The position numbers and the translations under genes were made by a program. The notes under the pieces were generated by a model, which worked only from the letters and a program-made list of their open reading frames with translations, had not been told where the DNA came from and did no database searches. A stretch of 64,000 nucleotides of DNA, from NCBI GenBank assembly GCA_947494715.1, contig CANLWG010000010.1:151175-215174 (forward strand), in the 5' to 3' direction. Within the stretch, counting starts at the first letter, position 1. Each line of letters begins with the position of its first letter. Origin of the DNA: an uncultured Flavobacteriaceae bacterium (GTDB taxonomy: Bacteria > Bacteroidota > Bacteroidia > Flavobacteriales > Flavobacteriaceae). Positions 29,871 to 58,481 of the stretch are shown piece after piece.

Positions 29871-29880
29871 ACTCAGAAGA

Positions 29881-32436: not shown

Positions 32437-32447
32437 AAAAGTAAGCT

Positions 32448-32876: not shown

Positions 32877-32913
32877 ACTACAGCAAAGCTCGTCGGAACG
32901 GCGGACAAATCAG

Positions 32914-33001
32914 ACCAAGACCATAACTATGGGACTGCATGAGTCAAGAAACAAGACGTTTCTGTCTTGCCCTCTTGATTCTATAAGCGAAGCGGTCTTG
33001 G
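32914..33001. repeat. Nested inverted repeats inside the efflux operon
   Basis: Three nested stems share the core CAAGA: ACCAAGACC (32914-32922) with GGTCTTGG (32994-33001), TCAAGA (32944-32949) with TCTTGA (32973-32978), and CAAGAC (32952-32957) with GTCTTG (32964-32969). They fill most of the 152-base gap between the DUF2141 gene and the first permease. No T-run follows, so it is more likely an RNA-processing or stability element, or a repeat-family insertion, than a terminator. Confidence 0.6.
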
Positions 33002-33028
33002 CTCATTTAAAGAAAATGGATTAAGAAT

Positions 33029-34138: not shown

Positions 34139-34173
34139 AAGAATACCTTAAGGGGTTAACTAAAAATAGCTTA

Positions 34174-35301: not shown

Positions 35302-35316
35302 TTAGCTATTGACCCT

Positions 35317-36459: not shown

Positions 36460-37770
36460 TTAATCTATCAAACCAAAAAAACGCGGTAACCAAAGGGAGA
36501 TTTCACCAAAATAAGTGATGACCAATAAAATCAAGACCATAGCGCCCAATAAAGGTAACAAGGGGCGTATAACCTTGGTAACCGGAACTTTGGCCACACC
36601 ACTTCCCACAAAAAGTAAGGTTCCCACAGGTGGGGTACATACCCCGATACAAAGGTTAAGCACAATGACCATTCCAAATTGTACGGGATGCATCCCCAAG
36701 GCCATCGCCACGGGCAGAAAAATTGGTGTAAAAATAAGAACGGCAGGAGTCATGTCCATAAAAGTACCCACGATCAGCAAAGTAATATTGATCAATAAAA
36801 GAACCAAAAAGGGGTTGTTTACGGATTCTACCAAAAGTGATGTCAACATTTGGGGTATACCCTCAAAAGAAAAAAGCCATGACATGGCCATTGAAGTGGC
36901 AATCAAGAACATGACTATGGCGGTGGTTTTAGCACTTTGCAACAAAGTGGGCCTAAAATCCGTAAATTTCAATTCGCGGTTCAAAAACCCCAACAGGACT
37001 GCGTAAACCACGGCAATGGCGGCGGCCTCGGTAGCCGTAAATATTCCGGCAACGATTCCGCCCACGACAATAACCAAAAGGGTAAGGCTTAAAAATGCAT
37101 TCTTGAAATCAATAAAAAGTTGTTTAAAACCAACGCGTGGGGCTCTAGGCAAATTCTTTCTTTTGGCATAAAGGAACACCATAAACATAAGTGCCAGTCC
37201 TACCAAGATACCTGGAGCATAACCGGCAATGAACAAGGCTGCAACGGAGGCGGTACCCCCACTTGCCAGAGCATAGACGATAAGTACGTTACTCGGGGGA
37301 ATCAATAGACCTGTGGTCGAAGAGCTAATATTTACCGAAGCGCTAAATTCCCTTGGGTAGCCTTCCTTTTCCATCTTATCGGTCAACGTACTACCTATAG
37401 CAGATGCCGCCGCTATGGCCGATCCCGAAATTGCACCGAACAGCATGGCCGCTATGATATTTACATAAGCCAAACCTCCTGGGAGACTTCCAATAAGCGA
37501 TTTGGCAAAATCTATCAATCGTTTTGCAATCCCACCACGGTTCATAAGCTCCCCCGCCAAAATAAAAAACGGAATGGCCAATAGTGCAAAATTATCTATT
37601 CCCGTAGTCATTCGTTGAGCGGCGGTGGTAGTTGCAGGCATAAAAACAATGTTCAAAAGCAAAGTAAGCGTAGTAGAAATGCCAATGGAATAGGCAACGG
37701 GAACCCCATAGGCCAATAGGCCGATAAAACTTACGAACAAGACTAGGATGCTTATGGTTTCAATGCTCAT
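36460..37770 (-). CDS. TRAP transporter large permease (DctM/SiaM-type)
   Basis: 436 residues with about twelve helices: ILVLFVSFIGLLAYGVPVAYSIG at the N-terminus, IPFFILAGELMNRGGIAKRLIDFAKSLIG, GAISGSAIAAASAIGSTL, and PPVGTLLFVGSGVAKVP. It is the sodium-driven transport subunit of a tripartite periplasmic transporter that carries carboxylate substrates. It overlaps the small permease gene by 11 bases and is the last gene of the catabolic operon. Confidence 0.95.
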   Translation of the reverse strand: MSIETISILVLFVSFIGLLAYGVPVAYSIGISTTLTLLLNIVFMPATTTAAQRMTTGIDNFALLAIPFFILAGELMNRGGIAKRLIDFAKSLIGSLPGGLAYVNIIAAMLFGAISGSAIAAASAIGSTLTDKMEKEGYPREFSASVNISSSTTGLLIPPSNVLIVYALASGGTASVAALFIAGYAPGILVGLALMFMVFLYAKRKNLPRAPRVGFKQLFIDFKNAFLSLTLLVIVVGGIVAGIFTATEAAAIAVVYAVLLGFLNRELKFTDFRPTLLQSAKTTAIVMFLIATSMAMSWLFSFEGIPQMLTSLLVESVNNPFLVLLLINITLLIVGTFMDMTPAVLIFTPIFLPVAMALGMHPVQFGMVIVLNLCIGVCTPPVGTLLFVGSGVAKVPVTKVIRPLLPLLGAMVLILLVITYFGEISLWLPRFFGLID

Positions 37771-38251
37771 GGGCTTTTGGACTAAAGGTTATGGTTATAT
37801 GATACACGCAAAAGAAAATTATGATAAGTCCACTTACGGGTACAATGGTATATACAAATCCAAGCGGGACGTTCAAGGCGGGCGAGATCTGGCCTAATTT
37901 CAGGGTAGTATACACCAAATTTCCACCTCCAATGACCATGACCACCAAAGCAAAAAGGGCCATAAACCATTGTATCTTCTTTTGTCGCTTCCTTCTTTTT
38001 TCAGGAGAAAGTTTGGAAACCAGAAAATCCATGGAAAGATGTCCTTCCTTCATCCCATTAATGTAAGTAGCTCCCAAAAGAGTGAGCCAAATAAGTGCAA
38101 AACGTGCAAATTCCTCTGTGAACGAGCTGGATTGTCCTATTATATATCTGGACACCACCTGCCATACCACATCAATAACTAGAAGACCGAAAATGAGTAC
38201 CAAAAAGGCTTCGATAATCTTATTTAAAGTCCGGTACAAACGCTTTATCAT
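37760..38251 (-). CDS. TRAP transporter small permease (DctQ-type)
   Basis: 163 residues with four helices: FLVLIFGLLVIDVVWQVVSRYI, the conserved SSFTEEFARFALIWLTLLGATY (acidic pair in the second helix), IQWFMALFALVVMVIGGGNLVY and IVPVSGLIIIFFCVYHI. It scaffolds the large permease. Its ATG overlaps the stop of the binding-protein gene by four bases (ATGA), so the P-Q-M set is translationally coupled. Confidence 0.93.
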   Translation of the reverse strand: MIKRLYRTLNKIIEAFLVLIFGLLVIDVVWQVVSRYIIGQSSSFTEEFARFALIWLTLLGATYINGMKEGHLSMDFLVSKLSPEKRRKRQKKIQWFMALFALVVMVIGGGNLVYTTLKLGQISPALNVPLGFVYTIVPVSGLIIIFFCVYHITITFSPKAHEH

Positions 38252-39240
38252 TGCGATTTAATTTTCTCGATATACTCCTTCATTTTTGGATCTTCCATTA
38301 ATCGCTCCATAACGGGGCTTGACTTTGAGGCAAAAGATTCCTTTTCCGGATAGTTGAACTCCACTTTGGCTTTTTTGAGCACTTCCATATTTTCCTTTAC
38401 TGTTTCCCGCCAATACTGTTTCTGTTTTTCAACACTTTCCGAAGCCGCCGAATGCAACCATTCCTTTTCTTGATCGGACAAGGTATCCCAGAACTTGGTC
38501 CCTATCACCACTACATCGGGGACCATACTATGCTGGTCAAAGGAATAATATTTACACACCTCATAATGATTGGAGGTTACGAAGGAGGGAATATTGTTCT
38601 CCGCCCCATCCACAACATTCTGTTGCAAAGCAGTATATAGTTCTCCATAAGCCATAGGCGTTGCAGAAGCGCCCAAGGTATTGACCATATCAACGGACAT
38701 CTGATCGTTCATGACCCTTATTTTTAAGCCTTTCAAATCATCCGGGGTCTGAATTGGTTTTCCCTTGGTATAAAAACTTCGACTGCCCGCATCGTAAAAG
38801 CAAAGACCTCGTAAAAGATATTCCGTTCCACCCGCCAATAACTTCTGTCCTACCTCTCCCTCCAGAACACTAAAGAGATGTTCACTGTCCCTAAAAAGAT
38901 AAGGCACTCCCATTACTTTGTATTCAGGAGCAAAATTGGACATCGATGCGGCACTTACCTTGGTCATGGCAATACTGCCTATCTGCAACAGTTCCAATAC
39001 TTCGCGTTCCGTTCCCAGTTGACCGTCGGGAAAAATCTTTATTTGAAGCTTGCCATCGGATTTCTCGTTAACGAACTTCTGCATATCCAAAATACCTTTA
39101 TGTACGGGATGCGTAATGGGCAACGAATGGGCAAAATAGAGCACTTTTTGGTCTCTAATCTCTGAGCAGGAAACCTGAAAAAGGGCGAATACGGCAATGG
39201 ATGGGAGGGTCAAAAAAATGAAACGGTATCTATTGCGCAT
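38248..39240 (-). CDS. TRAP transporter substrate-binding protein (DctP-type)
   Basis: 330 residues. The N-terminus ends FQVSCSE, a probable lipidation Cys, so the receptor may be membrane-tethered rather than freely soluble as in most TRAP systems. The DctP fold shows FAHSLPITHPVHKGI, the conserved ligand-carboxylate-binding Arg in LKIRVMNDQMSVDMVNTLGASATPMAYGELYTALQQNVVDGAENNI. That Arg usually pairs with a carboxylate, so an acidic substrate such as a uronate, aldonate or keto-acid is likely. Confidence 0.92.
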   Translation of the reverse strand: MRNRYRFIFLTLPSIAVFALFQVSCSEIRDQKVLYFAHSLPITHPVHKGILDMQKFVNEKSDGKLQIKIFPDGQLGTEREVLELLQIGSIAMTKVSAASMSNFAPEYKVMGVPYLFRDSEHLFSVLEGEVGQKLLAGGTEYLLRGLCFYDAGSRSFYTKGKPIQTPDDLKGLKIRVMNDQMSVDMVNTLGASATPMAYGELYTALQQNVVDGAENNIPSFVTSNHYEVCKYYSFDQHSMVPDVVVIGTKFWDTLSDQEKEWLHSAASESVEKQKQYWRETVKENMEVLKKAKVEFNYPEKESFASKSSPVMERLMEDPKMKEYIEKIKSQ

Positions 39241-39320
39241 ATTTTAAGTAATGAAGTCCAATGGTACGGGGGATCCACTTTACCGCTTATAAATATAGGA
39301 AAGAAAGTGGTTCTTGCAAT

Positions 39321-40712
39321 TTATTTTTGCTGTGCCATTTTTAAAGCCTCAATTGTTGTATGATATTTTGAAATCATATTGGGAACTTCCCATTCCGGAA
39401 GTTTTCCAGCTTCTAAATACTTTAAATAGTTTTGGGTTACCTGACCAAAATGGGCTTCATGGCCAATTTTGAATTCATCGGGAATGGTAATACGATATGT
39501 ATCATCTGAAAGCTTTTCCATAGCTGTACCTGGAAACTCGGTGTTTATTTTGGTATCGACCGCATCCGTTAGGTTAGCTTCAAAACCCTCTTCTTGCTTT
39601 GGCCGAATGTACAGTATAGGTTTATAATTCTCCTCAGGGCCTTGTTTAATGATCAAATCACTTTTGGTACCTCTCATGATGCTATAATGGGTATCGCCAG
39701 TTCCCTCAGGAGCCTGATAATTCCAAATAACGGAAACCTTGGCAAGCTTTCCTTTTATTCTGTAGCGCATTTCCCCATTGCAATATACATGTAGCTTTTC
39801 GCCCTTAATATCCTTTTGTAAATAATCCGGATAGGTATCCAGACCTGTAACTTTCTGAAATTCATCTTTTGTTAAAATAGTGGGCCAACGTTTGGCGCTA
39901 AGCATCTCGACATCAGTTGAATCGATAATTTGTCCGGGAAAGGCTTCCCATTGCACCAAATCCACCAAATGCGTGGTAACGTCTACTATGCCCTCGCCCT
40001 CTTCATTTACATCAAAAAACCATGGGGGACGTACCAAAGGTTGTCCTGAAACATATTTAAAAAAATGATGGACGCTTTCCTTGCTAATGGCCGGTTCCTT
40101 CAGGGAACCATCTACCAATTCACCAAATACGGAAGGCATTGTGGAAAAAAGTTTCTGCATGACCGTTGTTGATTCAAAACGCTCGGTCATGATATCATAG
40201 ATAAGCACATTCTTTTCCTTGGCGATTTGAAAAGCCTCTTTCAATTTTTTAAATCCCTCGGAATCAATTACCAGGGGCTTATCCGCATACACGTTGAGAC
40301 CCGCCTTGACCGCATCTAGTATGTAATCGATTTTTTTTGAATTTTTTCCGGCAACGATCATCACATTTCCCGGTTTTTCGGTAAGCATCTTTTCCAAATA
40401 ATCAGAGCCGAGGTAATTCTTAGTACTCCAATCCGTTGGTGATTCGTCCCTGCTATTATATGCCTCGATTTTGGCTAAAAAGTCCTGTGCCTCTGGCCCT
40501 TGAGGAGCAAAAAGATAAATAGTGGAATCAACCTGGGGATACATGGTCTTATGTACCAAGGCCGCATGAAAATGGCCCGGATCCAAAGTCATCAATTTCA
40601 CTTTTTCCACTGATTCTTCCCCATCCATTTTTTCATTAGTTTTTTTTTCTGCACAGGCAAGGCAGAGTATCAATAAAAACAAGGCATTAAGTTTCATTCT
40701 TTTTGGTTTCAT
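39321..40712 (-). CDS. Putative oxidoreductase, Gfo/Idh/MocA-related lipoprotein
   Basis: 463 residues (start 40712; ATG 40697 is an alternative). The signal peptide ends LCLACAEKK with a lipobox Cys. The N-terminal region has LDPGHFHAALVHK, then a Rossmann-type alpha/beta domain with VMIVAGKNSKKIDYILDAVKAGLNVYADKPLVID, where ADKP matches the EKP motif of Gfo/Idh/MocA enzymes. The C-terminal part is beta-sheet rich. Lipid-anchored, hence periplasmic. Sugar-type substrates and tightly bound NAD(P) are known for exported members of this superfamily. Confidence 0.82.
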   Translation of the reverse strand: MKPKRMKLNALFLLILCLACAEKKTNEKMDGEESVEKVKLMTLDPGHFHAALVHKTMYPQVDSTIYLFAPQGPEAQDFLAKIEAYNSRDESPTDWSTKNYLGSDYLEKMLTEKPGNVMIVAGKNSKKIDYILDAVKAGLNVYADKPLVIDSEGFKKLKEAFQIAKEKNVLIYDIMTERFESTTVMQKLFSTMPSVFGELVDGSLKEPAISKESVHHFFKYVSGQPLVRPPWFFDVNEEGEGIVDVTTHLVDLVQWEAFPGQIIDSTDVEMLSAKRWPTILTKDEFQKVTGLDTYPDYLQKDIKGEKLHVYCNGEMRYRIKGKLAKVSVIWNYQAPEGTGDTHYSIMRGTKSDLIIKQGPEENYKPILYIRPKQEEGFEANLTDAVDTKINTEFPGTAMEKLSDDTYRITIPDEFKIGHEAHFGQVTQNYLKYLEAGKLPEWEVPNMISKYHTTIEALKMAQQK

Positions 40713-40818
40713 TGCTTGTGAAGGGGAAGATATGATTTTTAGATTAAAAATATCTTACCGAAACTAGTCATTTCTGCTTTAAATCTTTGAAGGAATATGA
40801 ATTGGGATACTTACGGTT

Positions 40819-42195
40819 TTAAACCTTTACGTAGTCCGTTCCATAAGGCTTGCGTTGTTCGCGTGCTAACATGGCATTGGCCTCGTCATCATTAACGAAA
40901 GTTTCCGTTTCATTGTCCCATTCCAATTTTCTATCGAATTGCATGGCGATGTCGCTAATCAAACAAATAGCACAGGCCTTATGCCCTTTTTCAATAGGTG
41001 AAATGGGTTGCTTTCGTGTTTTGATACACTCTAGCCAGTTGCCGTGCTGATCTTCGATTTTTTCAAGATGTATTTCGTTCTCGCCTATAACGGATTCCAA
41101 TATTTTGGGATCGGAGGCATTCAGGGCCTTTGCGCTTTTTTCCTTATCCACGGGATCGGATGCAGACGCTTGATAGGCTCCCCGGGAGACGAAAATCCAT
41201 CCATCTGTACCTTCATATCGAATTCCGTTGGTATAACCTCCACTCGTATAGACCGTCATGCCATTATCATATTCATGTTTCACAAAGAAATCGCCATGTA
41301 CGTTCCATAGGCCCGACTTTGGAAATTCCGCCAAAGCCTCTACTGAAATGGGGCCTGTTAACTCTGTATTCATTCCCCAAGCCGCTGAATCATAATGGTG
41401 TTGGCCCCATCCGGTTATCATACCAGCTCCATAACTTCGTAACCTTAACCAACCCGGTCTACTGTACCCTTCCGGTGGATGGACCCCGATTTCGGTATAA
41501 GGTACTTTAGGTGTAGAACCTAACCACATGTCAAAGTCCAAATTAGAAGGTACAGGCATCTCCGGGGCTTCTGGACCTGAAGGGTCTCCGGGAAGTCCAA
41601 TTTTTACGGTATGTATCTTTCCTATTCTTCCGTTTCTGACCAGTTCCGCTGCAACCCTAAACTGGGGCATAGCCCGTTGTTGTGTACCTACCTGAAGAAT
41701 TACACCTGTTTTCTTAATAACATCCCGCAACTGTTGGCCCTCCTTTAGGGTCAAGGATGTTGGTTTTTGCAAATAGATATCTTTTCCGGCCAAAGCTGCT
41801 TCCATGGCGGGCTGCGAATGCCAATGGTCCGGAGTACTTATTACCACGGCATCAATATCCTTGTTCATTAGCATTTCCCGATAGTCGCCATAAGTCTTGG
41901 TATCCATGTACTTATCCTTACCTGTCTTTTCCTTATAAAAGCCATCGACCAAAACTTTGGCATCGGCGGTCCTTTTTGAATCCACGTCACAAACGGCAAC
42001 AAACCGTGCCTCATCAAAACGTATGGTATCATGAATATCATGAGAGCGAGCGATGCGCCCACAACCGATTTGACCAATATTGATTTTATTGCTTGGGGCC
42101 TCCTTGCCTAAAACGTGTGCGGGTACTATACTGGGGAAACCTACCATCGCAGCCGTTCCCATTGCTGTTTTTTCCATAAAATTTCTTCGCTTCAC
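40819..42195 (-). CDS. Gfo/Idh/MocA-family oxidoreductase with Tat signal
   Basis: 458 residues from GTG 42195, supported by the N-terminal KRRNFMEKTAMGTAAMVGF, a Tat-type twin-arginine signal. Rossmann domain: INIGQIGCGRIARSHD, then VVISTPDHWHSQPAMEAALAGKDIYLQKP, where the catalytic Lys is kept. The C-terminal half has the sheet domain typical of glucose-fructose oxidoreductases. Tat export implies folding with cofactor in the cytoplasm, as in glucose-fructose oxidoreductase. It probably oxidises a sugar or sugar alcohol in the periplasm. It starts 18 bases after the DUF6807 gene. Confidence 0.9.
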   Translation of the reverse strand: MKRRNFMEKTAMGTAAMVGFPSIVPAHVLGKEAPSNKINIGQIGCGRIARSHDIHDTIRFDEARFVAVCDVDSKRTADAKVLVDGFYKEKTGKDKYMDTKTYGDYREMLMNKDIDAVVISTPDHWHSQPAMEAALAGKDIYLQKPTSLTLKEGQQLRDVIKKTGVILQVGTQQRAMPQFRVAAELVRNGRIGKIHTVKIGLPGDPSGPEAPEMPVPSNLDFDMWLGSTPKVPYTEIGVHPPEGYSRPGWLRLRSYGAGMITGWGQHHYDSAAWGMNTELTGPISVEALAEFPKSGLWNVHGDFFVKHEYDNGMTVYTSGGYTNGIRYEGTDGWIFVSRGAYQASASDPVDKEKSAKALNASDPKILESVIGENEIHLEKIEDQHGNWLECIKTRKQPISPIEKGHKACAICLISDIAMQFDRKLEWDNETETFVNDDEANAMLAREQRKPYGTDYVKV

Positions 42196-42213
42196 AATGC
42201 TCTAGTTTTATTT

Positions 42214-43437
42214 TTAACTTTTATTCATTTGTACTTGTGGTGGATTTGCAAATGCCTGCCAATAGGCTTCTGCTTCTTTAGCTTTAAGCTCACCGTCAAA
42301 TATCACCATTCTATAATTTAACTCATATTTTTTATCGGGTTCAATTTTCCATTCTTCATGCCGAATAGGGCAAAATTCGAAGAACATATCGCCCCTACCG
42401 CCATTGGCATCAATAGGCCATATACGCATAGGTTCCGGATGCATTCGGTTTTTAGGATGACTCATGAACAGGATACCATTGGTTTCCTGTCCGTCCGAAG
42501 ATTCACCGCTAACAATGCACCAACGGGCATTGCTGCCATCGGCGGTCAACCGATCCTTACCCTCGGAGGTGAGTACGGAACAGTTATCCTTGTTCCATCT
42601 TTCATTAAACCGCAGACCAATACCGCCGCCATAACGATAGGCTTCAAAAAGTATTCCCGATTCCAAAGGCGATGTAAAGGTGGTCGTATAATCCAACATA
42701 TACCGATCAGGTCGATCTAAATTCCAAAGTTGCACTTTCAAATCCTCGTTTAGCGCAACCTGAGGTGCATCGGCCGTTTTTAAGTCAATGTGTTCTTGAG
42801 CTGCTGTAAAGGATGTATGGACGTTGCCAGAACGAGTTTCCTTAAACTCCTTGAAAAGTACGGTTCCCATACCCTCGCCGAGATTCCAAAAATCTACCCG
42901 TTCCCCATTAACCTGTGTATGGGTCCAAGGTCCCCATAGTCCATAATGATGATAATGGTCCGGAGGCTGAATACGCGTAAGTGTATCTCCTTTTGGAGTT
43001 CGTATTGGGTGTATGTAACCGGATTTTCTATAAAGGGAGTCAGTACCTTCAGGAGGATACATCATTTCATACCTGTATTGTACCAATGGATTATTTTCAA
43101 TGGACAACTGAAGGTTTCCATTATCCTTAGAGGTCGATAAATTTGGACCGCTAATGAATTTCTTTTCAACTTTTTCCAAGCTATAGGAAGCTTTGTTATC
43201 CGGATGATGAAGAAACCAGAGTTTTTGCCCTTCTTTATCCGATTGGTAAGAAACCGGTTCTCCATGATTGAAAATCATGTAGTTATCGTCATCTATACCT
43301 TTGAGATCGTCAAGTTCCAGAACTACTGGAATGGTATTCAAAATACCGTCGCCTTCCTTTACCTCAAATCGATAAATCTCTTTTTCCTGGCATGACCCTA
43401 AAGTGATGACTAGGCAAAAAAGAAAAATCTGTTTCAT
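42214..43437 (-). CDS. DUF6807 (PmoA-type) lipoprotein
   Basis: 407 residues from ATG 43437. The signal peptide ends TLGSC, a lipobox. The mature part contains YIHPIRTPKGDTLTRIQPPDHYHHYGLWGPWTHTQVNG, a His-rich signature of DUF6807 proteins often labelled PmoA despite no link to methane oxidation, and FEAYRYGGGIGLRFNERWN. These beta-sandwich proteins recur in sugar-oxidation clusters beside Gfo/Idh genes and ThuA. An activity on oxidised sugars is plausible but not proven. Confidence 0.85.
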   Translation of the reverse strand: MKQIFLFCLVITLGSCQEKEIYRFEVKEGDGILNTIPVVLELDDLKGIDDDNYMIFNHGEPVSYQSDKEGQKLWFLHHPDNKASYSLEKVEKKFISGPNLSTSKDNGNLQLSIENNPLVQYRYEMMYPPEGTDSLYRKSGYIHPIRTPKGDTLTRIQPPDHYHHYGLWGPWTHTQVNGERVDFWNLGEGMGTVLFKEFKETRSGNVHTSFTAAQEHIDLKTADAPQVALNEDLKVQLWNLDRPDRYMLDYTTTFTSPLESGILFEAYRYGGGIGLRFNERWNKDNCSVLTSEGKDRLTADGSNARWCIVSGESSDGQETNGILFMSHPKNRMHPEPMRIWPIDANGGRGDMFFEFCPIRHEEWKIEPDKKYELNYRMVIFDGELKAKEAEAYWQAFANPPQVQMNKS

Positions 43438-43501
43438 AGACAAAGGTTTAGGCGACGGAATTTAAGAAAAAACTAACAAACTCAAACTAACTCAACAAAT
43501 A

Positions 43502-45361
43502 TCATTCACCTGGTTCTGGTATGCTTGTAAGCGGCGGAATATTATTCTCGACCCCTGGATATCCCTCATTTTGATTTATCCTTCCCTGTGTATTTGCATT
43601 AATTGCTGCTGCAGGCACCGGCCATAAAACATGATAGGGACTCATCGTAAATTGAACACCAAAAATTGTCCTGAGGCCTGGAACGTTATAAAAATCCGTT
43701 ACATCCATAATACGATCAAACCAAAAATTGGATTGTGAAAAATTATCCAAGTTATAGGAAGTTCCCAAATATGAAGTTCTTCCAGTTCTTGCAAAAATAT
43801 AGGCAATACGGGTCAATTCCGTATTTCTGGGTTCTTCATAATAGAGTTCTCTTGCCCGTTCATCCAAAATCAAATCGATATTAACATCGCCCGCGTCTAT
43901 TTGGTCTGCCTCCGCCCTTTCACGAACTGTGTTGATATCCGCAGCCGCTAGGGCATTGTTGTTGTTCCAAAAATAGGCCTCCGCTCTTAAAAGGTAGGTT
44001 TCGGCCAAACGATAGATATACCAATCCCCGTGTCCTCCTGATGGTCTAGTGGCTGTAGGATCGTCCACAAACAATTTATATTGAGGAAAACCATACCAAT
44101 TACGTATGGTATCCGAACACAACGGCGTACCATCCGGTAGGTAAAGCTGTAGGTTTTGGCCATAAAATGAGTTGCCATCTTGCAACAATTGAGGTTCGTT
44201 ATAGACCAAATCCTCCATATCGATCCAATTCCCATTGTTCCGATTATGTCTCTGGTCATTGTTGGCATCCTCCCAAACATCTATGGTGCTATAACGCGTA
44301 CCGCGGTTTCTACCGATGCCCCGGCCCACTTCCAAAACCAATGGAATTTCCGCCAAGGGGTCGTCTGACATACCGTCCTGGCCATCCGGGGTATTGATAA
44401 ACCGCCACCATAGCGGAACGGCCTGCCGCATAATACTGGTACCGTTACCGAAAGCACCTCTGTCCCTAAACTCCAGTCGGTCTATGGCCACTAAAATCCC
44501 TTCTGTGTTTCCCGGTAGACTTTTGTTTTCAACTTGGTGTAAATCCCAGGTAACATCTTTGTCAGCATTGGATTCATCAACCCCAAACCTATTTCTCATT
44601 AAATCATAGTTGCCCCCATCGATGACTTGGGATGCCGATGCAATCGCCGCATCAAAATCACCTAATGCCAAGTTTACCTTGGTCAATAAATGCAAGACAG
44701 CCCCTCTAGAGACCTCCCCCCCTGCAGCGGTTTCGTTGACCATGGGCACCGCCATATTAAGATCTTCCTGAATTTTCCTTAGGACAACATCCCTTTCGGT
44801 GGATACAAAATCCAATCGAGGTCCCGATACCTCCTCCAAGACAAAGGGAATATCCCCAAATTGGTGGGTCAGGCGATAATAGCGATATGCCCTATGGAAC
44901 AAGGCCCTACCCAAGATATCGTTTCGCTGGGCTTCACTTTCGAATTCGGCATCGTCCAACCGGTTTATTACGGTATTGGCGAATTTAATGCCTTCATAAA
45001 ATTCCTCCCAAAACCATCCAATCTTGTTCGTGTTGGAATTGTTAAGGTCGGCATCCGGGAGAATCTGTGCATTCAAATCCTGTGCAGGACCTGCTTTATC
45101 CGTAGTACCTTCTATGGCCACCTCGGAAAAAATGTTTTCCGTAATCATTGGTGCCCCGTCTCCATAAAATTCCGCCCTGATACCCGTTAGAGCTTGGGAC
45201 AGCACGGTATTTAATCCTTCGGGAGTGTTCAAGGCATTCTCCGGCGTAAAGAATGATTTTGGTTCCTGTGTCAAGAATTCTTTGGTACAGGAAAGTGGGA
45301 TGCATGCCAAAACAAACAGTATCATTAGGCGGTATGCATACTTTTTACTTAAATATTTCAT
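43502..45361 (-). CDS. SusD/RagB-family outer-membrane nutrient-binding lipoprotein
   Basis: 619 residues with a lipoprotein signal (ending PLSCTKEFL). The SusD N-terminal tetratricopeptide-like helices follow (FFTPENALNTPEGLNTVLSQALTGI, ILGRALFHRAYRYYRLTHQFGDIPFV), then a long extended middle part, and RLAETYLLRAEAYFWNNNNALAAADINTVRERA near the C-terminus. It caps the SusC barrel and captures glycan at the surface. It starts 22 bases after the SusC stop. Confidence 0.95.
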   Translation of the reverse strand: MKYLSKKYAYRLMILFVLACIPLSCTKEFLTQEPKSFFTPENALNTPEGLNTVLSQALTGIRAEFYGDGAPMITENIFSEVAIEGTTDKAGPAQDLNAQILPDADLNNSNTNKIGWFWEEFYEGIKFANTVINRLDDAEFESEAQRNDILGRALFHRAYRYYRLTHQFGDIPFVLEEVSGPRLDFVSTERDVVLRKIQEDLNMAVPMVNETAAGGEVSRGAVLHLLTKVNLALGDFDAAIASASQVIDGGNYDLMRNRFGVDESNADKDVTWDLHQVENKSLPGNTEGILVAIDRLEFRDRGAFGNGTSIMRQAVPLWWRFINTPDGQDGMSDDPLAEIPLVLEVGRGIGRNRGTRYSTIDVWEDANNDQRHNRNNGNWIDMEDLVYNEPQLLQDGNSFYGQNLQLYLPDGTPLCSDTIRNWYGFPQYKLFVDDPTATRPSGGHGDWYIYRLAETYLLRAEAYFWNNNNALAAADINTVRERAEADQIDAGDVNIDLILDERARELYYEEPRNTELTRIAYIFARTGRTSYLGTSYNLDNFSQSNFWFDRIMDVTDFYNVPGLRTIFGVQFTMSPYHVLWPVPAAAINANTQGRINQNEGYPGVENNIPPLTSIPEPGE

Positions 45362-45383
45362 AGTTCTATCTATTTTCTTTTTA

Positions 45384-48300
45384 TTATAAACTTATATCAA
45401 GACCCAGTGTAAAAAATCTTGGTATGGGTTCACGATCATTACCCACCAATTCACCGTCATCATTCCTACTTGCCCCGTTAATATTGGTGCCTTGGGGATC
45501 ATAGAAATCCCAGTCAGGTGCCCAAACCGCCACATTGCGGATGTTACCATAAATACGGACACTGTTTATCCTAAGCCTTGACAATAAAGCTTTTGGGAGT
45601 CTGTATGCCAAGGTAATATTGCTCAATCGAATGAAAGAACTGTTCCGATAAACGTTGAAAGCGGCACTACCATCATTGGAAAACAGACGAGCATAGTCGT
45701 TTAAGGGGTTTTCCGGGGTCCAATAAGGGGTCACGGGAGAATTTACCCGATCCACAAAACCGTTCCTATTCTTGGCTTCGTTAAAGACCCGTTTCTGACC
45801 TAGATTAGAGTACACTTCAAAAGCAAAATCGATGTTCTTGAAAAAAGTAAACCTATTCGTCATACCCCAAATGTACTGGGGAGCACGGTTCCCGACGAAA
45901 ACCTTATCATCATCGTTCAAAATTCCGTTATTATCCACATCCCGGAGTTTAAAGTCGCCTGGCTCCACACCGTAACGGGCCGCTTCGTCAGCTTCGTCCA
46001 ATTGCCATACTCCTAGTTCCTCAAAATCCCAAATGATATCAACAGGCTGGCCAATAAATCTTCTATTTACAATATCATCCAATTCATTGCCATTCTCGTC
46101 CAAATCACCGTAAAGTTCATTAATCTTGTTTCTGTTCATGGAAAAGTTAAAATTAGTACTCCATGCAAAGTTCTCCCTGTTAAAATTTTGGGTGGATATT
46201 ACAAATTCCAACCCTTGGTTCTGTATTTCCCCTAAATTGGTAAACACATTCTCGAACCCGGTTACATTAGGTAATTCGCGTTCAACGATTAAATCCGTGG
46301 TGATATTTCTATAGGCATCGATAGATCCCTCTACGATACCCCCGGCGAAACTAAAATCCAGCCCTAAATTGACCGCCTTGGTCCTTTCCCAACGCAGATC
46401 AGGATTTTGAAGGGTAGTGTTATTAAGGGTAGCTACAGGTATTACCCCAGAATCGCCTACATTCAGATAATTACCTGCCGCCAATTGGGACAATTGGGCG
46501 TACGCGCCCAGTCCACGTTCAGGCTCAAAAGACCTAAAACCACCGGGATCAGGGTTAGTATCAATTCGTCTTCCACTACCAAAACCCCGGTTTCCATTTT
46601 CACCATAAGAGGCCCTAAATTTTAAAAAGGTGATAAGATCAGACTTGAAGAAATCTTCCTCAGAAATTGTCCATGCCCCGGCAACGGAGGGGAAAAAACC
46701 CCTTTGATTGGCAAGCCCAAAGGCCGAATAGCCATCCCTACGCATGGTCAAGCTCAGATTGTATCTGGAATCATAATTATAATTCAGACGTGTCATTATG
46801 GCATCGCCCGTGGTCTCCTCATCATCCGAGAATACGCCTTGGATGAGTCCTGCCTGCAAGGCACCAAAACCCAGGGTGTCATTGGGCTCAAAGGTATTGG
46901 AATTGGCGATGGTAGTAAAAGTTTGGTACTTTTCCGCATAGAATAGGGCAGTCAAACCAAAGGTGTGTTTTCCTAAGGTCTTGTCCCAACGGATGATATT
47001 ATCTAACTGATACTCCGTTTGTTTCCGATTCCAACGCTGTGAGCGTCCAACCTGATTGTTAGGATTCAACGATGAGGCATGTACAAAGTATTCCTCGATA
47101 TCCAAACGGTTGGTATAACCCAGTTCATAGGAAAAACCTAGTGGGAGTTTTACCTTGGCATATATCCGGGAATTGAAGGAGTGTTCCAAATCTACCCAAT
47201 CATCGTAAGTAGGTCTTAAAAAAGCACTTTGGGCACCCGCTCCCGGATCATCCTGTGGGCTGATTCTTAAGAATTCCCCGGAATCGTCAAACTCGGAGCC
47301 CCAGGGCGAGGATGAAAAAACCTGGTTTTGGTCGGCTGGCAAAAAACCTTCGTCTCTTTTGGCAAATTGGGTGTTCATCCCAACGGTCAACCAGTCGTTA
47401 ATCTTGGCATCTAGATTTAAGCGGGATCGCAAGGTCTCAAATTTATCACCGGCAATGATGCCCTCATTGGACATACGGCCTATGGACCAATAGTAGTTCA
47501 GCCCTCCATTGCTTCCAGAAATGCTAACGTTCTGCTCGTTTCTAAAACCGGTCTGCATAATCCTATCATACCAATTGATACTTTTACCTTCCAAGTAATT
47601 ATTGACTTCTACGTTTTGAAACCCTATTCGGGTCAACCAAACCGTTGTTGGGTCACCTTGCGCCCCGGTATAGCCCAGCCACTGGTCTAGGCCAACTCCG
47701 GCAGGCAAATTGTTGGGGTTATCAAAAATGCCCGGATTTTCAGAGGCTAATTGACCACGACTACTTTTAAAAACATCGACCCGCCAATTGGCATAACCTT
47801 CCGGACTATAGGGCCTAACAGGATTTGCTTCGCGGGTTATCCCCACACTGGTGTTGATATTGATTACGGGCTTATCACTAGTTCCCCTTTTTGTGGTTAC
47901 CAAGATAACACCACTCGCCCCACGAGCTCCATAAACGGCAGCGGAACTAGCATCCTTTAGTACGTCCAGTTTGTCAATATCGGCCGGGTTAATATCCGAA
48001 AGGTCGCCCGTATATAAAATACCATCGACGACGATCAAGGGACTACTCCCTGCAGCCAAGCTATTGTTCCCCCGTATTTGGATTTCACTATTTCCTTTTG
48101 GATCAGCTGTAAATCCAATGTTTAGGCCCGCAACATTACCTCGTAAAATATCAGTGACCGTATTAACGGATTGATTAGAAACTTCGGCAGCGTCCAACTG
48201 GGCGACCGCCCCTGTTAAATCCTTTTTCTTAACGGCACCATAGCCGACCACTACTACTTCATCTAAAGTTGAAGCGGTAGCTACCATGGTCACGTTAATT

Positions 48301-48599
48301 GTTGAGTTACCTCCTACCGGTATTTCCTGGGCTTCAAAACCAATGTAAGTAATTACCAGGGTGGCGTTGGCATTGGCAACCTCTATGGAATAATTTCCAT
48401 CAAAATCCGCGGACGCACCATTGGTAGTACCTTTTTCAACTACCGCTGCACCGGGCAAGGGTACCCCCGCATCGTCCACCACTGTTCCGGTTACCGTAAA
48501 TGAGTCCTGACTATATGAGGATATAGTGAACATCACGGCAAAAAGGCATAGAATCCATACGTTTTTTGGAACTTTTGCTTTTTCAAATAAGTGTTTCAT
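45384..48599 (-). CDS. SusC/RagA-family TonB-linked outer-membrane protein
   Basis: 1071 residues from ATG 48599 (the open frame extends four codons upstream). Signal peptide ending ISSYSQ, then a CarbopepD_reg_2 domain (FTVTGTVVDDAGVPLPGAAVVEKGTTNG), the VVVVGYGAVKKKDLTGAV plug entry typical of SusC, the plug (ILRGNVAGLNIG, IRGNNSLAAGSSPLIVVDGI) and the large barrel, ending FTLGLDISL. It imports an oligosaccharide or similar ligand with its SusD partner. It is the first gene of the probable eight-gene operon. Confidence 0.96.
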   Translation of the reverse strand: MKHLFEKAKVPKNVWILCLFAVMFTISSYSQDSFTVTGTVVDDAGVPLPGAAVVEKGTTNGASADFDGNYSIEVANANATLVITYIGFEAQEIPVGGNSTINVTMVATASTLDEVVVVGYGAVKKKDLTGAVAQLDAAEVSNQSVNTVTDILRGNVAGLNIGFTADPKGNSEIQIRGNNSLAAGSSPLIVVDGILYTGDLSDINPADIDKLDVLKDASSAAVYGARGASGVILVTTKRGTSDKPVININTSVGITREANPVRPYSPEGYANWRVDVFKSSRGQLASENPGIFDNPNNLPAGVGLDQWLGYTGAQGDPTTVWLTRIGFQNVEVNNYLEGKSINWYDRIMQTGFRNEQNVSISGSNGGLNYYWSIGRMSNEGIIAGDKFETLRSRLNLDAKINDWLTVGMNTQFAKRDEGFLPADQNQVFSSSPWGSEFDDSGEFLRISPQDDPGAGAQSAFLRPTYDDWVDLEHSFNSRIYAKVKLPLGFSYELGYTNRLDIEEYFVHASSLNPNNQVGRSQRWNRKQTEYQLDNIIRWDKTLGKHTFGLTALFYAEKYQTFTTIANSNTFEPNDTLGFGALQAGLIQGVFSDDEETTGDAIMTRLNYNYDSRYNLSLTMRRDGYSAFGLANQRGFFPSVAGAWTISEEDFFKSDLITFLKFRASYGENGNRGFGSGRRIDTNPDPGGFRSFEPERGLGAYAQLSQLAAGNYLNVGDSGVIPVATLNNTTLQNPDLRWERTKAVNLGLDFSFAGGIVEGSIDAYRNITTDLIVERELPNVTGFENVFTNLGEIQNQGLEFVISTQNFNRENFAWSTNFNFSMNRNKINELYGDLDENGNELDDIVNRRFIGQPVDIIWDFEELGVWQLDEADEAARYGVEPGDFKLRDVDNNGILNDDDKVFVGNRAPQYIWGMTNRFTFFKNIDFAFEVYSNLGQKRVFNEAKNRNGFVDRVNSPVTPYWTPENPLNDYARLFSNDGSAAFNVYRNSSFIRLSNITLAYRLPKALLSRLRINSVRIYGNIRNVAVWAPDWDFYDPQGTNINGASRNDDGELVGNDREPIPRFFTLGLDISL

Positions 48600-48638
48600 A
48601 AAATCGGTCATTTAAGTTTAGAATGTTGAATTGTTAAA

Positions 48639-48668
48639 CAAATCTAAACAAAAATCGCATTAATGCAA
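48639..48668 (-). promoter_or_regulatory. Predicted promoter of the susC operon
   Basis: On the minus strand a perfect -7 box TAGATTTG (48639-48646) is preceded, after 19 bases, by TTG (48666-48668), which serves as the -33 element. The start of transcription is expected near 48634, giving a leader of about 35 bases before ATG 48599. Confidence 0.6.
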
Positions 48669-48676
48669 TCGATTGC
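48657..48676. promoter_or_regulatory. Probable LacI-family operator
   Basis: GCAATCGATTGC (48665-48676) is a perfect 12-base palindrome, with a second palindrome GCATTAATGC at 48657-48666 sharing its end. The even-length GC...GC symmetry with a central CG step is typical of LacI/CcpA-family operators. It covers the -33 TTG of the susC promoter, so bound regulator would block RNA polymerase. It lies between the divergent susC and lacI genes. Confidence 0.65.
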
Positions 48677-48830
48677 GTAAAAATTTATGAAACAAATGAC
48701 TTTTTTAACGCAACAAATATCCAAAAGCTTTTCAAAACCCTGTCAAAACCGATTAAATAGAAGATTTTATCGGCTTTCTTTCTCGATTACATATTTGTTG
48801 CGTATTATTGTTGCAGAAAGTACTGCCATT

Positions 48831-49847
48831 ATGGGTAAAAAAATTACGATTTACGATTTGGCGAAAAAACTAAATGTATCCCCGGCCACGGTGAGTAGAA
48901 GTTTGAACGACCATCCATCCATAAGCAAAAAAACAAAGGACAAAATAATTGCCGCAGCCAAATCCTTGGGCTACCGCACCAACAAATTCGCCGCTAACCT
49001 AAGCCAGCAAAAATCCAATACCATTGGCGTAATCGTACCAAGATTGAATTCCAATTTCATGTCCACGGTACTGGCCGGCATAGAAAAAGTGGCAAACGAT
49101 GTAGGTTATAACCTTATTATTAGTCAATCCCTGGAATCTGCCGAAAAAGAAGTATTGAATGCCAAAACCTTATATGATAGTGGGGTAGATGCCCTAATGA
49201 TTTCTTTGGCCTATGGAACCGAGAACTTTGACCATCTTACAACATTTATAGATCGAAAGATACCTTTATTGTTTTTTGACAGGGTGTTTGACTTACCCAA
49301 TTGCCCGACCATTTTAATTGATAATGAAGCTGCGGGATATGAGGCCACGGAACATCTAATAGGTCAAGGTTGCACCAATATCCTGCATATTGCCGGAGGA
49401 TTAAAAAGAAATGTGTATTGCCAAAGATTCAAGGGCTATAAAAAGGCTTTGAACAAGCATGGCATCGCCTTTAAAGAAGATGATTTGGTTGAAGTGGACT
49501 TGGATTTGAGCAGGGTACCGGAAGTAATAGCCCATATTAAGGAATCCGTTCCAAAAATTGATGGATTGTTCGTGGCCAATGATACCTTTGCGGTTCATTG
49601 CATCAAAGAACTCAAAAGGGAAGGATATCGTATTCCCCAAGATATAAAAGTTATGGGTTTTAATAATGATCCCGTCTCCGAAGTCATTAGCCCCAATCTA
49701 AGTACAATAGATTATCCCGGCTATAAAATGGGTGTTTTGGCCGGGCAAAGCATTATTGGGCATTTGAGCGGCACTATAAATTTGCAATCCGCAAACCAAA
49801 TTACCCTTAGGCATACCTTAATAATTCGGGAATCTACCCAAAAATAA
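48831..49847 (+). CDS. LacI-family transcriptional regulator
   Basis: 338 residues from ATG 48831, where the family start MGKKITIYDLAKKLNVSPATVSRSL begins; the open frame extends 48 codons upstream without family sequence. The N-terminal HTH and hinge (NDHPSISKKTKDKIIAAAKSLGY) are followed by a periplasmic-binding-protein-like sensor domain (NTIGVIVPRLNSNFMSTVLAGIE, IDGLFVANDTFAVHCIKEL, VMGFNNDPVSEVISPNLSTID). It probably represses the divergent SusCD-TRAP operon until a sugar-like inducer binds. It is followed after 10 bases by ThuA. Confidence 0.93.
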   Translation: MGKKITIYDLAKKLNVSPATVSRSLNDHPSISKKTKDKIIAAAKSLGYRTNKFAANLSQQKSNTIGVIVPRLNSNFMSTVLAGIEKVANDVGYNLIISQSLESAEKEVLNAKTLYDSGVDALMISLAYGTENFDHLTTFIDRKIPLLFFDRVFDLPNCPTILIDNEAAGYEATEHLIGQGCTNILHIAGGLKRNVYCQRFKGYKKALNKHGIAFKEDDLVEVDLDLSRVPEVIAHIKESVPKIDGLFVANDTFAVHCIKELKREGYRIPQDIKVMGFNNDPVSEVISPNLSTIDYPGYKMGVLAGQSIIGHLSGTINLQSANQITLRHTLIIRESTQK

Positions 49848-49857
49848 TCGGCTTATT

Positions 49858-50775
49858 ATGAAAAAAGTGACATTAACCATTCTACTATCCATTTTTTGTT
49901 TGCTTGCCAAAGCACAGAACATTCAAGAGTTTGAGCCTAACGATGAATGGTTGGCCAAAATAGAAAACATTGCACCGACCCAACCAACGGTCAAAAATGT
50001 AGACAAGAAGAAAATCCTGGTCTTTTCCAAAGCCACAGGGTTCTATCATTGGACCATTCCGCATAATATTGAATTGCTAAAAATTCTCGCCAAAAAAACC
50101 AAAATCTTTGAGATTCACGTGGGCTACGACATCCAAAAATTTGAAAAGAAAAGTCTCAAAGAATATGATGCCGTTGTTTTTAACAATTGCAACCCCAGCG
50201 GTCCGGATAGAGATCTTTTTGCCGACTTGCTCCGTCAGAATACATCATTATCCGATGCTGAAATCAAGAACAAGGCCTCAGGATATGAAGCGAATATGAT
50301 GAACTATGTTAAAAAGGGCGGAGGACTAATGATATTGCACGGCGCCATTACCGTACAGAACAACTCAGCTACTTTTAGCAAAATGACCGGTGGCAGTTTT
50401 GACTACCATCCCAAACAACAGCAGATGCACGTTAAAGAAGTAGATACAAACCATCCTTTGGTAAGGGCATTCAAGGGCAAGGGGCTTATCCATATAGATG
50501 AACCTTATTTTTTTAAGAATGCTTATTTCGACTACAATTTTAGGCCGCTACTTTATATTGAAGTGGATCAATTGGAAGATGTAAGAAAAGCAGTAAGCAA
50601 TAATATTAATTATGTTTCCTGGATCAAAAGATATGGCAAAGGGCGAGTATTTTATAGCTCTCCCTCACACAATGCACAAAGTTTGGAAAATCCGGAATTA
50701 CTACAGTACTTTTTGGATGGTCTCCAATATGTTGTGGGAGATTTAGTGTGTGATGATAGCCCAATAAAAAAATAA
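49858..50775 (+). CDS. ThuA-domain secreted protein
   Basis: 305 residues with a signal peptide ending LLAKAQ. The ThuA-like glutamine-amidotransferase-type fold shows KKILVFSKATGFYHWTIPHNIELL, YDAVVFNNCNPSG, GGGLMILHGAI and the closing YGKGRVFYSSPSHNAQSLENPELLQYFLDGLQYVVGD. ThuA is linked to 3-keto-disaccharide metabolism in rhizobia (trehalose utilisation), though its catalytic role is not settled. It is co-transcribed with lacI and probably works with the Gfo/Idh enzymes of the divergent operon. Confidence 0.88.
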   Translation: MKKVTLTILLSIFCLLAKAQNIQEFEPNDEWLAKIENIAPTQPTVKNVDKKKILVFSKATGFYHWTIPHNIELLKILAKKTKIFEIHVGYDIQKFEKKSLKEYDAVVFNNCNPSGPDRDLFADLLRQNTSLSDAEIKNKASGYEANMMNYVKKGGGLMILHGAITVQNNSATFSKMTGGSFDYHPKQQQMHVKEVDTNHPLVRAFKGKGLIHIDEPYFFKNAYFDYNFRPLLYIEVDQLEDVRKAVSNNINYVSWIKRYGKGRVFYSSPSHNAQSLENPELLQYFLDGLQYVVGDLVCDDSPIKK

Positions 50776-53627: not shown

Positions 53628-53638
53628 GAAGCGGTGTA

Positions 53639-55117: not shown

Positions 55118-55127
55118 AACATACAAT

Positions 55128-58364: not shown

Positions 58365-58382
58365 AATTAATTGCCAATCAAT

Positions 58383-58390
58383 CAAATATA
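58383..58390 (-). promoter_or_regulatory. Predicted -7 element of the PSD1 operon
   Basis: TATATTTG on the minus strand matches TAnnTTTG perfectly and lies 18 bases before ATG 58364. It supports that start over the longer reading frame. Confidence 0.5.
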
Positions 58391-58421
58391 GCTATAATGC
58401 CATGCGAAGGTAAGGTGTAAA

Positions 58422-58440
58422 AACAGTTTTATTAACTGTT
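58422..58440. promoter_or_regulatory. Palindrome in the divergent PSD1/winged-helix promoter region
   Basis: AACAGTTTTATTAACTGTT is a 19-base interrupted palindrome (arms AACAGT and ACTGTT). It lies between the -7 boxes of two divergent genes and is a candidate binding site for the adjacent winged-helix regulator. Confidence 0.45.
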
Positions 58441-58469
58441 AATAATAAATTCATACCTTTAGTAAAACG

Positions 58470-58477
58470 TAGGTTTG
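58470..58477 (+). promoter_or_regulatory. Predicted -7 element of the winged-helix regulator gene
   Basis: TAGGTTTG matches TAnnTTTG perfectly, four bases before ATG 58482, predicting a leaderless transcript. Confidence 0.5.
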
Positions 58478-58481
58478 GAAC

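What the first reader, a model, noticed from the sequence alone, without database searches (positions are those of the whole stretch)
36460..50775. SusCD locus without glycoside hydrolases, wired to periplasmic oxidoreductases and a TRAP importer
Seen: SusC, SusD, DUF6807, Tat Gfo/Idh, lipoprotein Gfo/Idh-like, DctP, DctQ, DctM on one strand with mostly short or overlapping gaps; LacI and ThuA divergent. Known: PULs normally carry hydrolases and MFS or ABC importers, and TRAP systems carry carboxylates. Inference: a sugar or glycoside crosses the outer membrane, is oxidised by exported Gfo/Idh enzymes (perhaps a 3-keto or acid product, as in ThuA-linked trehalose metabolism), and the product enters by TRAP. 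This would be an oxidative, hydrolase-free uptake route.
Basis: partly seen in the sequence, partly recalled or inferred. Interest (0 to 1): 0.72.

Follow-up and report, generated by a model that had tools for sequence, protein, structure and literature searches.

The report
Hydrolase-free hexuronide uptake operon
A bacterium of the Ulvibacterium group carries a SusCD nutrient-uptake operon in which no sugar-cutting hydrolase was recognised but which encodes redox enzymes with export signals beside an importer of the sugar-acid type; the enzymes are predicted to release a sugar acid, likely glucuronate, that the importer would take up, which would be an overlooked way of using algal sugar acids.

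Summary
In detail: SusC, SusD, DUF6807, a Tat-type Gfo/Idh (GfoTat), a PF16490 oxidoreductase lipoprotein (Oxred_C) and DctPQM on one strand, LacI and ThuA divergent, no glycoside hydrolase or polysaccharide lyase among 40 window proteins scanned. In the 80 best named loci with a GfoTat relative, Oxred_C is present in 74, ThuA in 71, DUF6807 in 66 and TRAP in 27. Where TRAP is present, mannonate oxidoreductase and/or mannonate dehydratase lie nearby in 23 of 27 (16 of 53 without TRAP) and uronate isomerase in 16 of 27 (0 of 53). DctP is closest to hexuronate-binding proteins and keeps their Arg/Arg/Asn residues. The TRAP cargo is therefore most likely a hexuronate of the glucuronate branch, not a 3-keto sugar or aldonate. 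The exported enzymes are predicted to release it from a hexuronide by redox-assisted cleavage. A LacI-operator-like core lies between susC and lacI in 7 of 7 genomes examined; in this genome the exact site occurs once, so no distant co-regulated hydrolase was seen. TRAP in PULs and oxidise-then-cleave glycoside pathways are both known; I saw no description of the combination. No activity was tested.

The parts
45384..48611 (-). SusC-type TonB-dependent outer-membrane transporter
   Evidence: TIGR04056 710 bits, above cut-off
43502..45361 (-). SusD-type outer-membrane binding lipoprotein
   Evidence: PF07980 178 bits
42214..43443 (-). DUF6807 lipoprotein; super-sandwich fold predicted
40819..42195 (-). 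GfoTat: Tat-type Gfo/Idh/MocA oxidoreductase
   Evidence: PF01408 and PF19051; best NCBIfam model BT_2158 glycoside 3-dehydrogenase, 134 bits, below its cut-off 750
39321..40712 (-). Oxred_C: Gfo/Idh-like lipoprotein with PF16490 C-terminal domain
   Evidence: PF16490 444 bits; match to 4oo3 over residues 37-463, E 1.8e-169
38248..39240 (-). DctP TRAP solute-binding lipoprotein, hexuronate type
   Evidence: PF03480 282 bits; best PDB matches 4n8y, 4x8r, 4ovr, 4n91, 4mhf; R154, R175, N215, D235 invariant in 62 of 62 DctP
37760..38251 (-). DctQ small TRAP membrane subunit
   Evidence: PF04290 91 bits
36460..37770 (-). DctM large TRAP membrane subunit
   Evidence: TIGR00786 458 bits, above cut-off
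48831..49847 (+). LacI-family regulator (ORF opens at 48687; start at 48831 preferred)
   Evidence: PF00356 and PF13377; start inferred from length of relatives
48664..48677 (.). Predicted LacI operator TGCAATCGATTGCG, 52 bp upstream of the susC start
   Evidence: Core GCAAYCGATTGC in 7 of 7 susC-lacI intergenic regions, the 14-mer TGCAAYCGATTGCR in 6 of 7; only exact 14-mer copy in the genome
49858..50775 (+). ThuA-family exported protein
   Evidence: PF06283 116 bits; found in 71 of 80 GfoTat loci
60599..62857 (-). DUF7133 beta-propeller plus cytochrome c protein, possible periplasmic electron sink (associated, not core)
   Evidence: PF23500, PF00034, TIGR02604 192 bits, above cut-off; in 21 of 80 loci within about 10 kb
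53639..58385 (-). DUF1501 (53639-55126) and PSCyt1/PSD1 (55128-58385) pair, associated in some relatives only
   Evidence: PF07394, PF07587, PF07583, PF07635; DUF1501 in 7 and PSD1 in 4 of 80 loci within about 10 kb; block beside the locus in G001, G002, G020 and, without DUF6503, G052

Best explanation
The window carries a SusCD operon in which a conserved module of export-signal-bearing proteins (DUF6807, a Gfo/Idh oxidoreductase, a PF16490 oxidoreductase and ThuA) is joined to a TRAP transporter whose binding protein is closest to hexuronate-binding proteins; the module is predicted to cleave a hexuronide by redox chemistry in the periplasm, and the freed hexuronate, likely D-glucuronate, would then enter by the TRAP system. 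Shown: gene content, order, family membership, conservation, the conserved palindrome, and the genetic link of this TRAP clade to the glucuronate branch of uronate catabolism. Inferred: SusCD brings a small hexuronide-bearing glycoside or oligosaccharide, sulfated in some relatives, across the outer membrane; GfoTat oxidises C3 of the uronosyl residue with tightly bound NAD(P); DUF6807 and ThuA carry out the cleavage (elimination and hydration or hydrolysis); Oxred_C reduces the 3-keto product back to the hexuronate. Imported glucuronate would then go through UxaC, an SDR D-mannonate oxidoreductase, UxuA, KDG kinase and KDPG aldolase, for all of which this genome has candidate genes on another contig. 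LacI likely represses both divergent units through one operator.
For: DctP: the 11 PDB sequences at E<=1e-55 include 4n91 (glucuronate), 4mhf (glucuronate/galacturonate) and 4n15, the template used to model the hexuronate-binding STM3169 (PMC7660916, passages); the aligned Arg, Arg, Asn and Asp are invariant in 62 of 62 flavobacterial homologues. The 30 DctP at >=70% identity to the window's form one clade (100/99); 29 of the 30 lie beside GfoTat and none of the other 32 does; their sister group of 7 sits with UxaC and UxuA in 7 of 7. In TRAP-bearing GfoTat loci, SDR or UxuA is present in 23 of 27 and UxaC in 16 of 27, against 16 of 53 and 0 of 53 in loci without TRAP; altronate dehydratase was found in none of the 80. 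The SDR scores above cut-off for D-mannonate oxidoreductase. Across 198 genomes, 14 of 15 with GfoTat also hold a hexuronate-type DctP, against 26 of 183 without (Fisher p 3e-10; relatedness not corrected). Own genome: UxaC, UxuA, SDR, PfkB kinase and KDPG aldolase in one cluster, and this is its only hexuronate-like TRAP (2 DctP in all; the other is 29% identical). Core conservation: Oxred_C 74, ThuA 71, DUF6807 66 of 80. GfoTat's nearest NCBIfam model is glycoside 3-dehydrogenase. The DUF6807 model resembles a uronide lyase and mutarotases. Precedent for an oxidation, elimination, hydration, reduction route: PMC7676230 (abstract), PMC10628242 (passages).
Against: GfoTat is far below the cut-off of the glycoside 3-dehydrogenase model (134 against 750 bits). 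No DUF1080 3-keto-glycoside hydrolase or TIM-barrel eliminase, the known cleavers, was seen in the window; a DUF1080 protein is encoded elsewhere in the genome and could act in trans. TRAP is missing from 53 of 80 loci, SusCD from 12 of 27 TRAP loci, DUF6807 from 7 of 27. This window's locus itself lacks UxaC, SDR and UxuA, and in the first set of seven TRAP-linked genomes SDR lies in the locus in 3, UxuA in 2 and UxaC in 1. Of seven glucuronate-contact positions read from the 4n91 alignment, three differ here (S39, L40, G73 in place of Asn, Gln, Glu; the mapping is mine, as STM3169 was not fetched). A beta-propeller plus cytochrome c protein sits near many loci (DUF7133-cytC 21, GSDH with cytochrome c 9 of 80), which hints at net oxidation and not a redox-neutral cycle. 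Hydrolases do occur in the wider flanks of at least three loci (GH2 in L209 and L120, an arabinofuranosidase in L080). 11 of the 27 TRAP loci are Arenibacter, so counts are not independent. No activity, ligand or expression datum exists.
Confidence: 0.5

Rival explanations
1. One reading: the exported oxidoreductases, with a cytochrome c dehydrogenase as electron sink, make an oxidised sugar acid (aldonate, or a keto-sugar acid) from a neutral sugar or glycoside, and TRAP imports that oxidised product, for instance mannonate that feeds UxuA directly.
For: UxuA sits in many loci (35 of 80). DUF7133-cytochrome c (21 of 80) and GSDH with cytochrome c (9 of 80) are neighbours. Three of seven glucuronate-contact positions of DctP differ.
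Against: UxaC, an isomerase of hexuronates (function recalled), sits in 16 of 27 TRAP loci and in 0 of 53 others, and the SDR accompanies UxuA; neither is needed for mannonate. The sister TRAP clade sits with UxaC in 7 of 7. Gfo/Idh enzymes are not known to me to oxidise C6 (recalled).
Confidence: 0.2
2. Two independent functions side by side: the ThuA-DUF6807-GfoTat-Oxred_C core processes one glycoside whose products enter another way, and TRAP merely scavenges free hexuronate set loose by other PULs, under a shared regulator.
For: TRAP is absent from 53 of 80 core loci, and hexuronate-type DctP occurs in 26 of 183 genomes without the core. Seven of the 15 core-bearing genomes have their TRAP elsewhere and one has none.
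Against: 14 of 15 core genomes have a hexuronate-type DctP. SDR or UxuA lies by the core in 16 of 53 loci that lack TRAP. The module's DctP form one clade.
Confidence: 0.2
3. One of the exported Gfo/Idh proteins is itself an NAD-dependent glycosidase (GH109 or GH4-like), so the locus holds a hydrolase in disguise and no separate cleaving enzyme is needed.
For: Weak N-terminal match of GfoTat to 2ixa, named alpha-N-acetylgalactosaminidase (E 4e-9, residues 36-194; that it is GH109 is recalled). Both proteins keep Lys-Pro and His/Asp motifs of the superfamily (motif meaning recalled).
Against: The match covers only the NAD-binding part and is weaker than matches to 8tdf and others. DUF6807 and ThuA would then have no role, yet are conserved.
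Confidence: 0.1

Closest known systems
Flavobacterial PULs with TRAP: NS5_D uronate PUL (PMC9122927) and the RhiABC-bearing pectin PUL of Gramella flava (PMC5306329)
   Same: PULs with a TRAP importer and uronate isomerase, plus mannonate dehydratase in NS5_D (passages seen).
   Different: GH95 accompanies many of the NS5_D loci and pectate lyases the G. flava one; here none was found, and there is an exported redox module instead.
Bacteroides thetaiotaomicron BT2157/BT2158 3-keto-glycoside pathway
   Same: Periplasmic glycoside 3-dehydrogenase BT2158 (PMC11300592, passages); the BT_2158 family is GfoTat's nearest NCBIfam model.
   Different: No DUF1080 hydrolase found in this locus; GfoTat below cut-off; here with SusCD, DUF6807, ThuA and TRAP.
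Oxidation-elimination-hydration-reduction pathways (levoglucosan lgdA/B1/B2/C, PMC7676230, abstract; A. tumefaciens OGE operon, PMC10628242, passages)
   Same: A C3 oxidation, a cleavage by elimination, a hydration and a reduction acting in series on one glycoside.
   Different: AtOGE is a TIM barrel, unlike the DUF6807 model; no SusCD or hexuronate importer in what I saw of these papers.
Hexuronate TRAP transporters (STM3169; Apre_1383 4n91; Bpro_3107 4mhf)
   Same: DctP sequence, Arg/Arg/Asn site, uronate-catabolism neighbours in relatives.
   Different: Here coupled to SusCD and exported oxidoreductases; three contact positions differ.
PL26 exo-rhamnogalacturonan lyase (5xqg) and galactose mutarotases
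   Different: 10% identity; the match covers only part (residues 27-507) of a chain of about 890 residues.

Membership tests
Polysaccharide utilization locus (PUL) | Adjacent SusC and SusD | tested here: met
Polysaccharide utilization locus (PUL) | Carbohydrate-cleaving enzyme (GH or PL) in the locus | tested here: not met
   0 of 40 window ORFs scanned. Of 128 unlabelled ORFs in or next to 80 related loci, no GH or PL among the 25 commonest of 91 Pfam families; 66 families are not printed. GH genes do lie further out in L209, L120 and L080
TRAP transporter (DctP type) | DctP, DctQ and DctM present, DctP with conserved ligand Arg | tested here: met
   R175 invariant in 62 of 62
Hexuronate TRAP subtype | Nearest characterised binding proteins bind hexuronates; Arg/Arg/Asn site | tested here: met
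   with PMC7660916; ligands of the three top matches 4n8y, 4x8r, 4ovr are recalled only
Hexuronate TRAP subtype | Asn, Gln, Glu contacts of the glucuronate-specific Apre_1383 and STM3169 | tested here: not met
   S39, L40, G73 here by my reading of the alignment; Bpro_3107 is said to use other residues too
Hexuronate TRAP subtype | Measured hexuronate binding | not testable with these tools
   Needs purified protein
BT2158-type glycoside 3-dehydrogenase | NCBIfam NF058561 score above 750 bits | tested here: not met
   134 bits
3-keto-glycoside pathway | DUF1080 or TIM-barrel eliminase encoded in the locus | tested here: not met
   None among the 40 window ORFs scanned; a DUF1080 protein is encoded on contig C8
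3-keto-glycoside pathway | C3 oxidation of a glycoside | not testable with these tools
   Needs enzyme assay
GH109 / NAD-dependent glycosidase | Full-length homology to a GH109 member | tested here: inconclusive
   2ixa matched at E 4e-9 over residues 36-194 only
PL26 lyase | PL26 fold and catalytic residues | tested here: inconclusive

The most novel reading that the evidence does not exclude
A self-contained, hydrolase-free PUL class: four exported enzymes (GfoTat, DUF6807, ThuA, Oxred_C) carry out oxidation, elimination, hydration and reduction on a hexuronide, with DUF6807 as a new eliminase built on the PL26/mutarotase super-sandwich and ThuA as the hydrating partner, and the product enters through a hexuronate TRAP recruited once by the module.
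Probability: 0.28. Interest if true: 0.8.

Novelty: new variant of a known kind. Interest (0 to 1): 0.58.

Why it matters
The core module occurs in many Flavobacteriaceae, several of them genera known from algae (Zobellia, Arenibacter, Maribacter, Pricia, Kriegella and others; lifestyle recalled), yet PUL surveys that look for SusCD plus CAZymes would be expected to skip it. If the mechanism holds, it assigns a pathway to DUF6807, PF16490 and exported ThuA proteins, explains why a carboxylate importer sits in a PUL, and adds hexuronides to the substrates opened by redox-assisted cleavage instead of hydrolysis.

Tried and rejected
GfoTat structure: the AF2 model was unusable (mean pLDDT 44; alignment of 25 rows, 82-89% identical to the first), so no fold search was made. 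PDB sequence searches found nothing for DUF6807 and ThuA. Distant regulon: TGCAAYCGATTGCR with up to one mismatch gave 4 forward and 5 reverse hits against 1 and 1 for the reversed control: the exact site and five other distinct sites. Four of the five lie inside predicted ORFs, one between ORFs; one of those inside an ORF (L214) is about 0.5 kb before an alpha-amylase gene, which I judged not to be an operator because of its place. So I saw no convincing distant hydrolase under this operator, but the two-mismatch search gave 37 hits against 8 for its control, so weaker LacI sites may exist. Extra genes inside distant loci were checked for AP_endonuc-type eliminases: those scanned singly were GSDH, cytochrome c, URO-D, short DUF6807, DUF2264 and sulfatase; in the bulk scan 3 of 128 ORFs matched AP_endonuc_2, which I did not place. 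That bulk scan used 128 of 136 unlabelled ORFs (8 of 9 alike 373-aa GSDH genes left out; flanking ORFs only if at least 200 aa), and only the 25 commonest of 91 families are printed. Large flanking ORFs scanned afterwards showed GH2 in L209 and L120 and an arabinofuranosidase in L080. The Big_7 protein beside ThuA (50853-52499) was checked as a hidden enzyme and gave only an Ig-like domain. Counts on 80 loci include 17 under 15 kb (shortest 3.7 kb), so absences are upper bounds; GfoTat is present in all 80 by construction; the tblastn thresholds were mine. The column called cytC133 was a wrong pick (a neighbouring 102-aa gene) and is not used. The 41 TRAP neighbourhoods (window plus L034-L073) leave out 3 of the 44 DctP matches (G120, G105, G135). 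The first tally of operator copies was mended: one of seven (G020) differs at the first base of the 14-mer. Literature: the listings of searches showed no paper that joins SusCD, exported Gfo/Idh, ThuA or DUF6807 with TRAP; I opened eight papers, seven for passages and one for its abstract. Two wanted papers are not held, so the 2024 paper on the 3-keto-glycoside pathway is recalled, and Vetting 2015 is known here only through PMC7660916.

Full report
What is there. Searches confirm every gene in the finding at its stated place and strand. The eight genes from SusC (start 48611) to DctM (end 36460) are closely spaced, with DctM/DctQ and DctQ/DctP overlapping. LacI and ThuA are divergent. Read by eye, DUF6807, Oxred_C and DctP begin with lipoprotein signals, GfoTat with a twin-arginine motif and ThuA with a Sec signal; no signal predictor was run. 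Pfam scans of 40 of the 54 window ORFs of at least 130 aa found no glycoside hydrolase or polysaccharide lyase.

The organism. The best relative of GfoTat is from an Ulvibacterium (97%). Two held genomes of the same genus have contigs whose lengths equal those of Ulvibacterium marinum and an Ulvibacterium MAG (401476 and 75636 bases). The genome has 5.97 Mb in 72 contigs.

The module is wider than the TRAP link. I fetched the 80 best of 257 loci that encode a GfoTat relative and scored their neighbours by tblastn. Oxred_C is present in 74, ThuA in 71, DUF6807 in 66, LacI in 42, SusC in 27, SusD in 26 and TRAP in 27 of 80; 17 loci are under 15 kb, so absences are upper bounds. The 15 core-bearing genomes among 198 relatives, which overlap this set, show the same picture: 7 have TRAP in the locus and 8 do not. 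In Zobellia, Pricia and others the core lies next to genes whose relatives stand at 20-25 kb in this window (w24510 relative in 22 of 80), so its chromosomal position is conserved in part, and in G020 (L038/L138) TRAP stands between Oxred_C and that flank.

What TRAP carries. DctP's best PDB relatives are hexuronate-binding proteins (ligands of 4n91 and 4mhf through PMC7660916; those of 4n8y, 4x8r and 4ovr recalled). The two arginines, the asparagine and the aspartate at the site are invariant in 62 of 62 homologues, while three further glucuronate contacts are not kept; the position mapping is mine. In the 27 TRAP-bearing loci, SDR or UxuA is present in 23 and UxaC in 16; in the 53 without TRAP the numbers are 16 and 0. 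The SDR of L037 passes the D-mannonate oxidoreductase cut-off (303 against 281 bits). Altronate dehydratase was found in none of the 80 loci, though it stands beside 13 of 34 hexuronate-type TRAPs that are not next to GfoTat. UxaC, mannonate oxidoreductase and UxuA are the D-glucuronate branch (established pathway knowledge; also in PMC7660916). A tree of 62 DctP puts the 30 with at least 70% identity to the window's in one clade (100/99), sister to 7 that sit with UxaC and UxuA in 7 of 7. Of the 30, 29 lie beside GfoTat and none of the other 32 does; the exception, G013 (L039), has its core elsewhere in the genome, and its TRAP stands beside UxaC. Genome-wide, 14 of 15 core-bearing genomes hold a hexuronate-type DctP against 26 of 183 others (p 3e-10 without correction for relatedness). 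The window's own locus has no uronate enzymes, but the genome encodes UxaC, UxuA, an SDR passing the same cut-off (362 bits), a PfkB kinase and KDPG aldolase in one cluster on contig C4, and the window TRAP is its only one of this type.

Regulation. The core GCAAYCGATTGC stands between susC and lacI in 7 of 7 TRAP-linked genomes examined, and the 14-mer TGCAAYCGATTGCR in 6 of 7. In this genome the 14-mer occurs exactly once, 52 bp before susC. Of five one-mismatch sites, four fall inside ORFs, one of them about 0.5 kb before an alpha-amylase gene. In related loci, hydrolase genes were met only outside the module (GH2 in L209 and L120, arabinofuranosidase in L080), but not every flanking gene was scanned.

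Known or new. TRAP in PULs of marine Flavobacteriia is known (PMC9122927, PMC5306329; passages), as are hexuronate TRAPs (PMC7660916; passages), periplasmic glycoside 3-dehydrogenation in Bacteroides (PMC11300592; passages) and DUF1080 hydrolysis (PMC9007349; passages). In the listings of nine searches I saw no paper that joins SusCD, exported Gfo/Idh, ThuA or DUF6807 and TRAP (listed in Tried and rejected). I file it as a new variant of a known kind.

Noticed in passing
window 52563-62857: NHL, DUF1501, PSCyt1/PSD1, w58.4, DUF6503 and DUF7133-cytochrome c genes recur beside the locus in G001, G002 and G020 and, without DUF6503, on the DctM side in G052.
   Followed up: partly
G000:C8:170-173 kb (L033): A second, different TRAP system (DctP 29% identical) beside an AP_endonuc_2 protein and, by eye, an amidohydrolase-like and an SMP-30-like gene; two Gfo/Idh genes and a DUF1080 gene lie about 15-27 kb further on (L081).
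   Followed up: partly
L116:8526-17771 (G000:C4): Hexuronate catabolism cluster of the same genome with a GH2 gene close by and no TRAP.
   Followed up: partly
L190, L193, L194, L198-L201, L203, L204: In nine MAG loci a glucose/sorbosone dehydrogenase gene follows Oxred_C, and a cytochrome c gene follows it (Pfam for L190 only).
   Followed up: partly
L202, L209, L213: Distant Bacteroidetes loci add a second, short DUF6807 protein, a URO-D-like protein and, in L213, a DUF2264 protein.
   Followed up: partly
L037:16929-18437, L190:7199-8713, L202:11424-12914: A sulfatase of one kind sits in 5 of 80 loci, a hint that the substrate can be sulfated (Pfam for L037 and L202).
   Followed up: partly
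window 28572-36207: An ABC-2 exporter operon (OEP, HlyD, two ATPases, two ABC-2 permeases) stands between the locus and the flank that adjoins the module in other genera, so it was likely inserted in this lineage.
   Followed up: no
window 50853-52499: Big_7-domain lipoprotein of unknown role between ThuA and NHL; absent at this place in G001 and G002, weakly similar proteins near the locus in G034 (26%) and a Cellulophaga (30%).
   Followed up: partly
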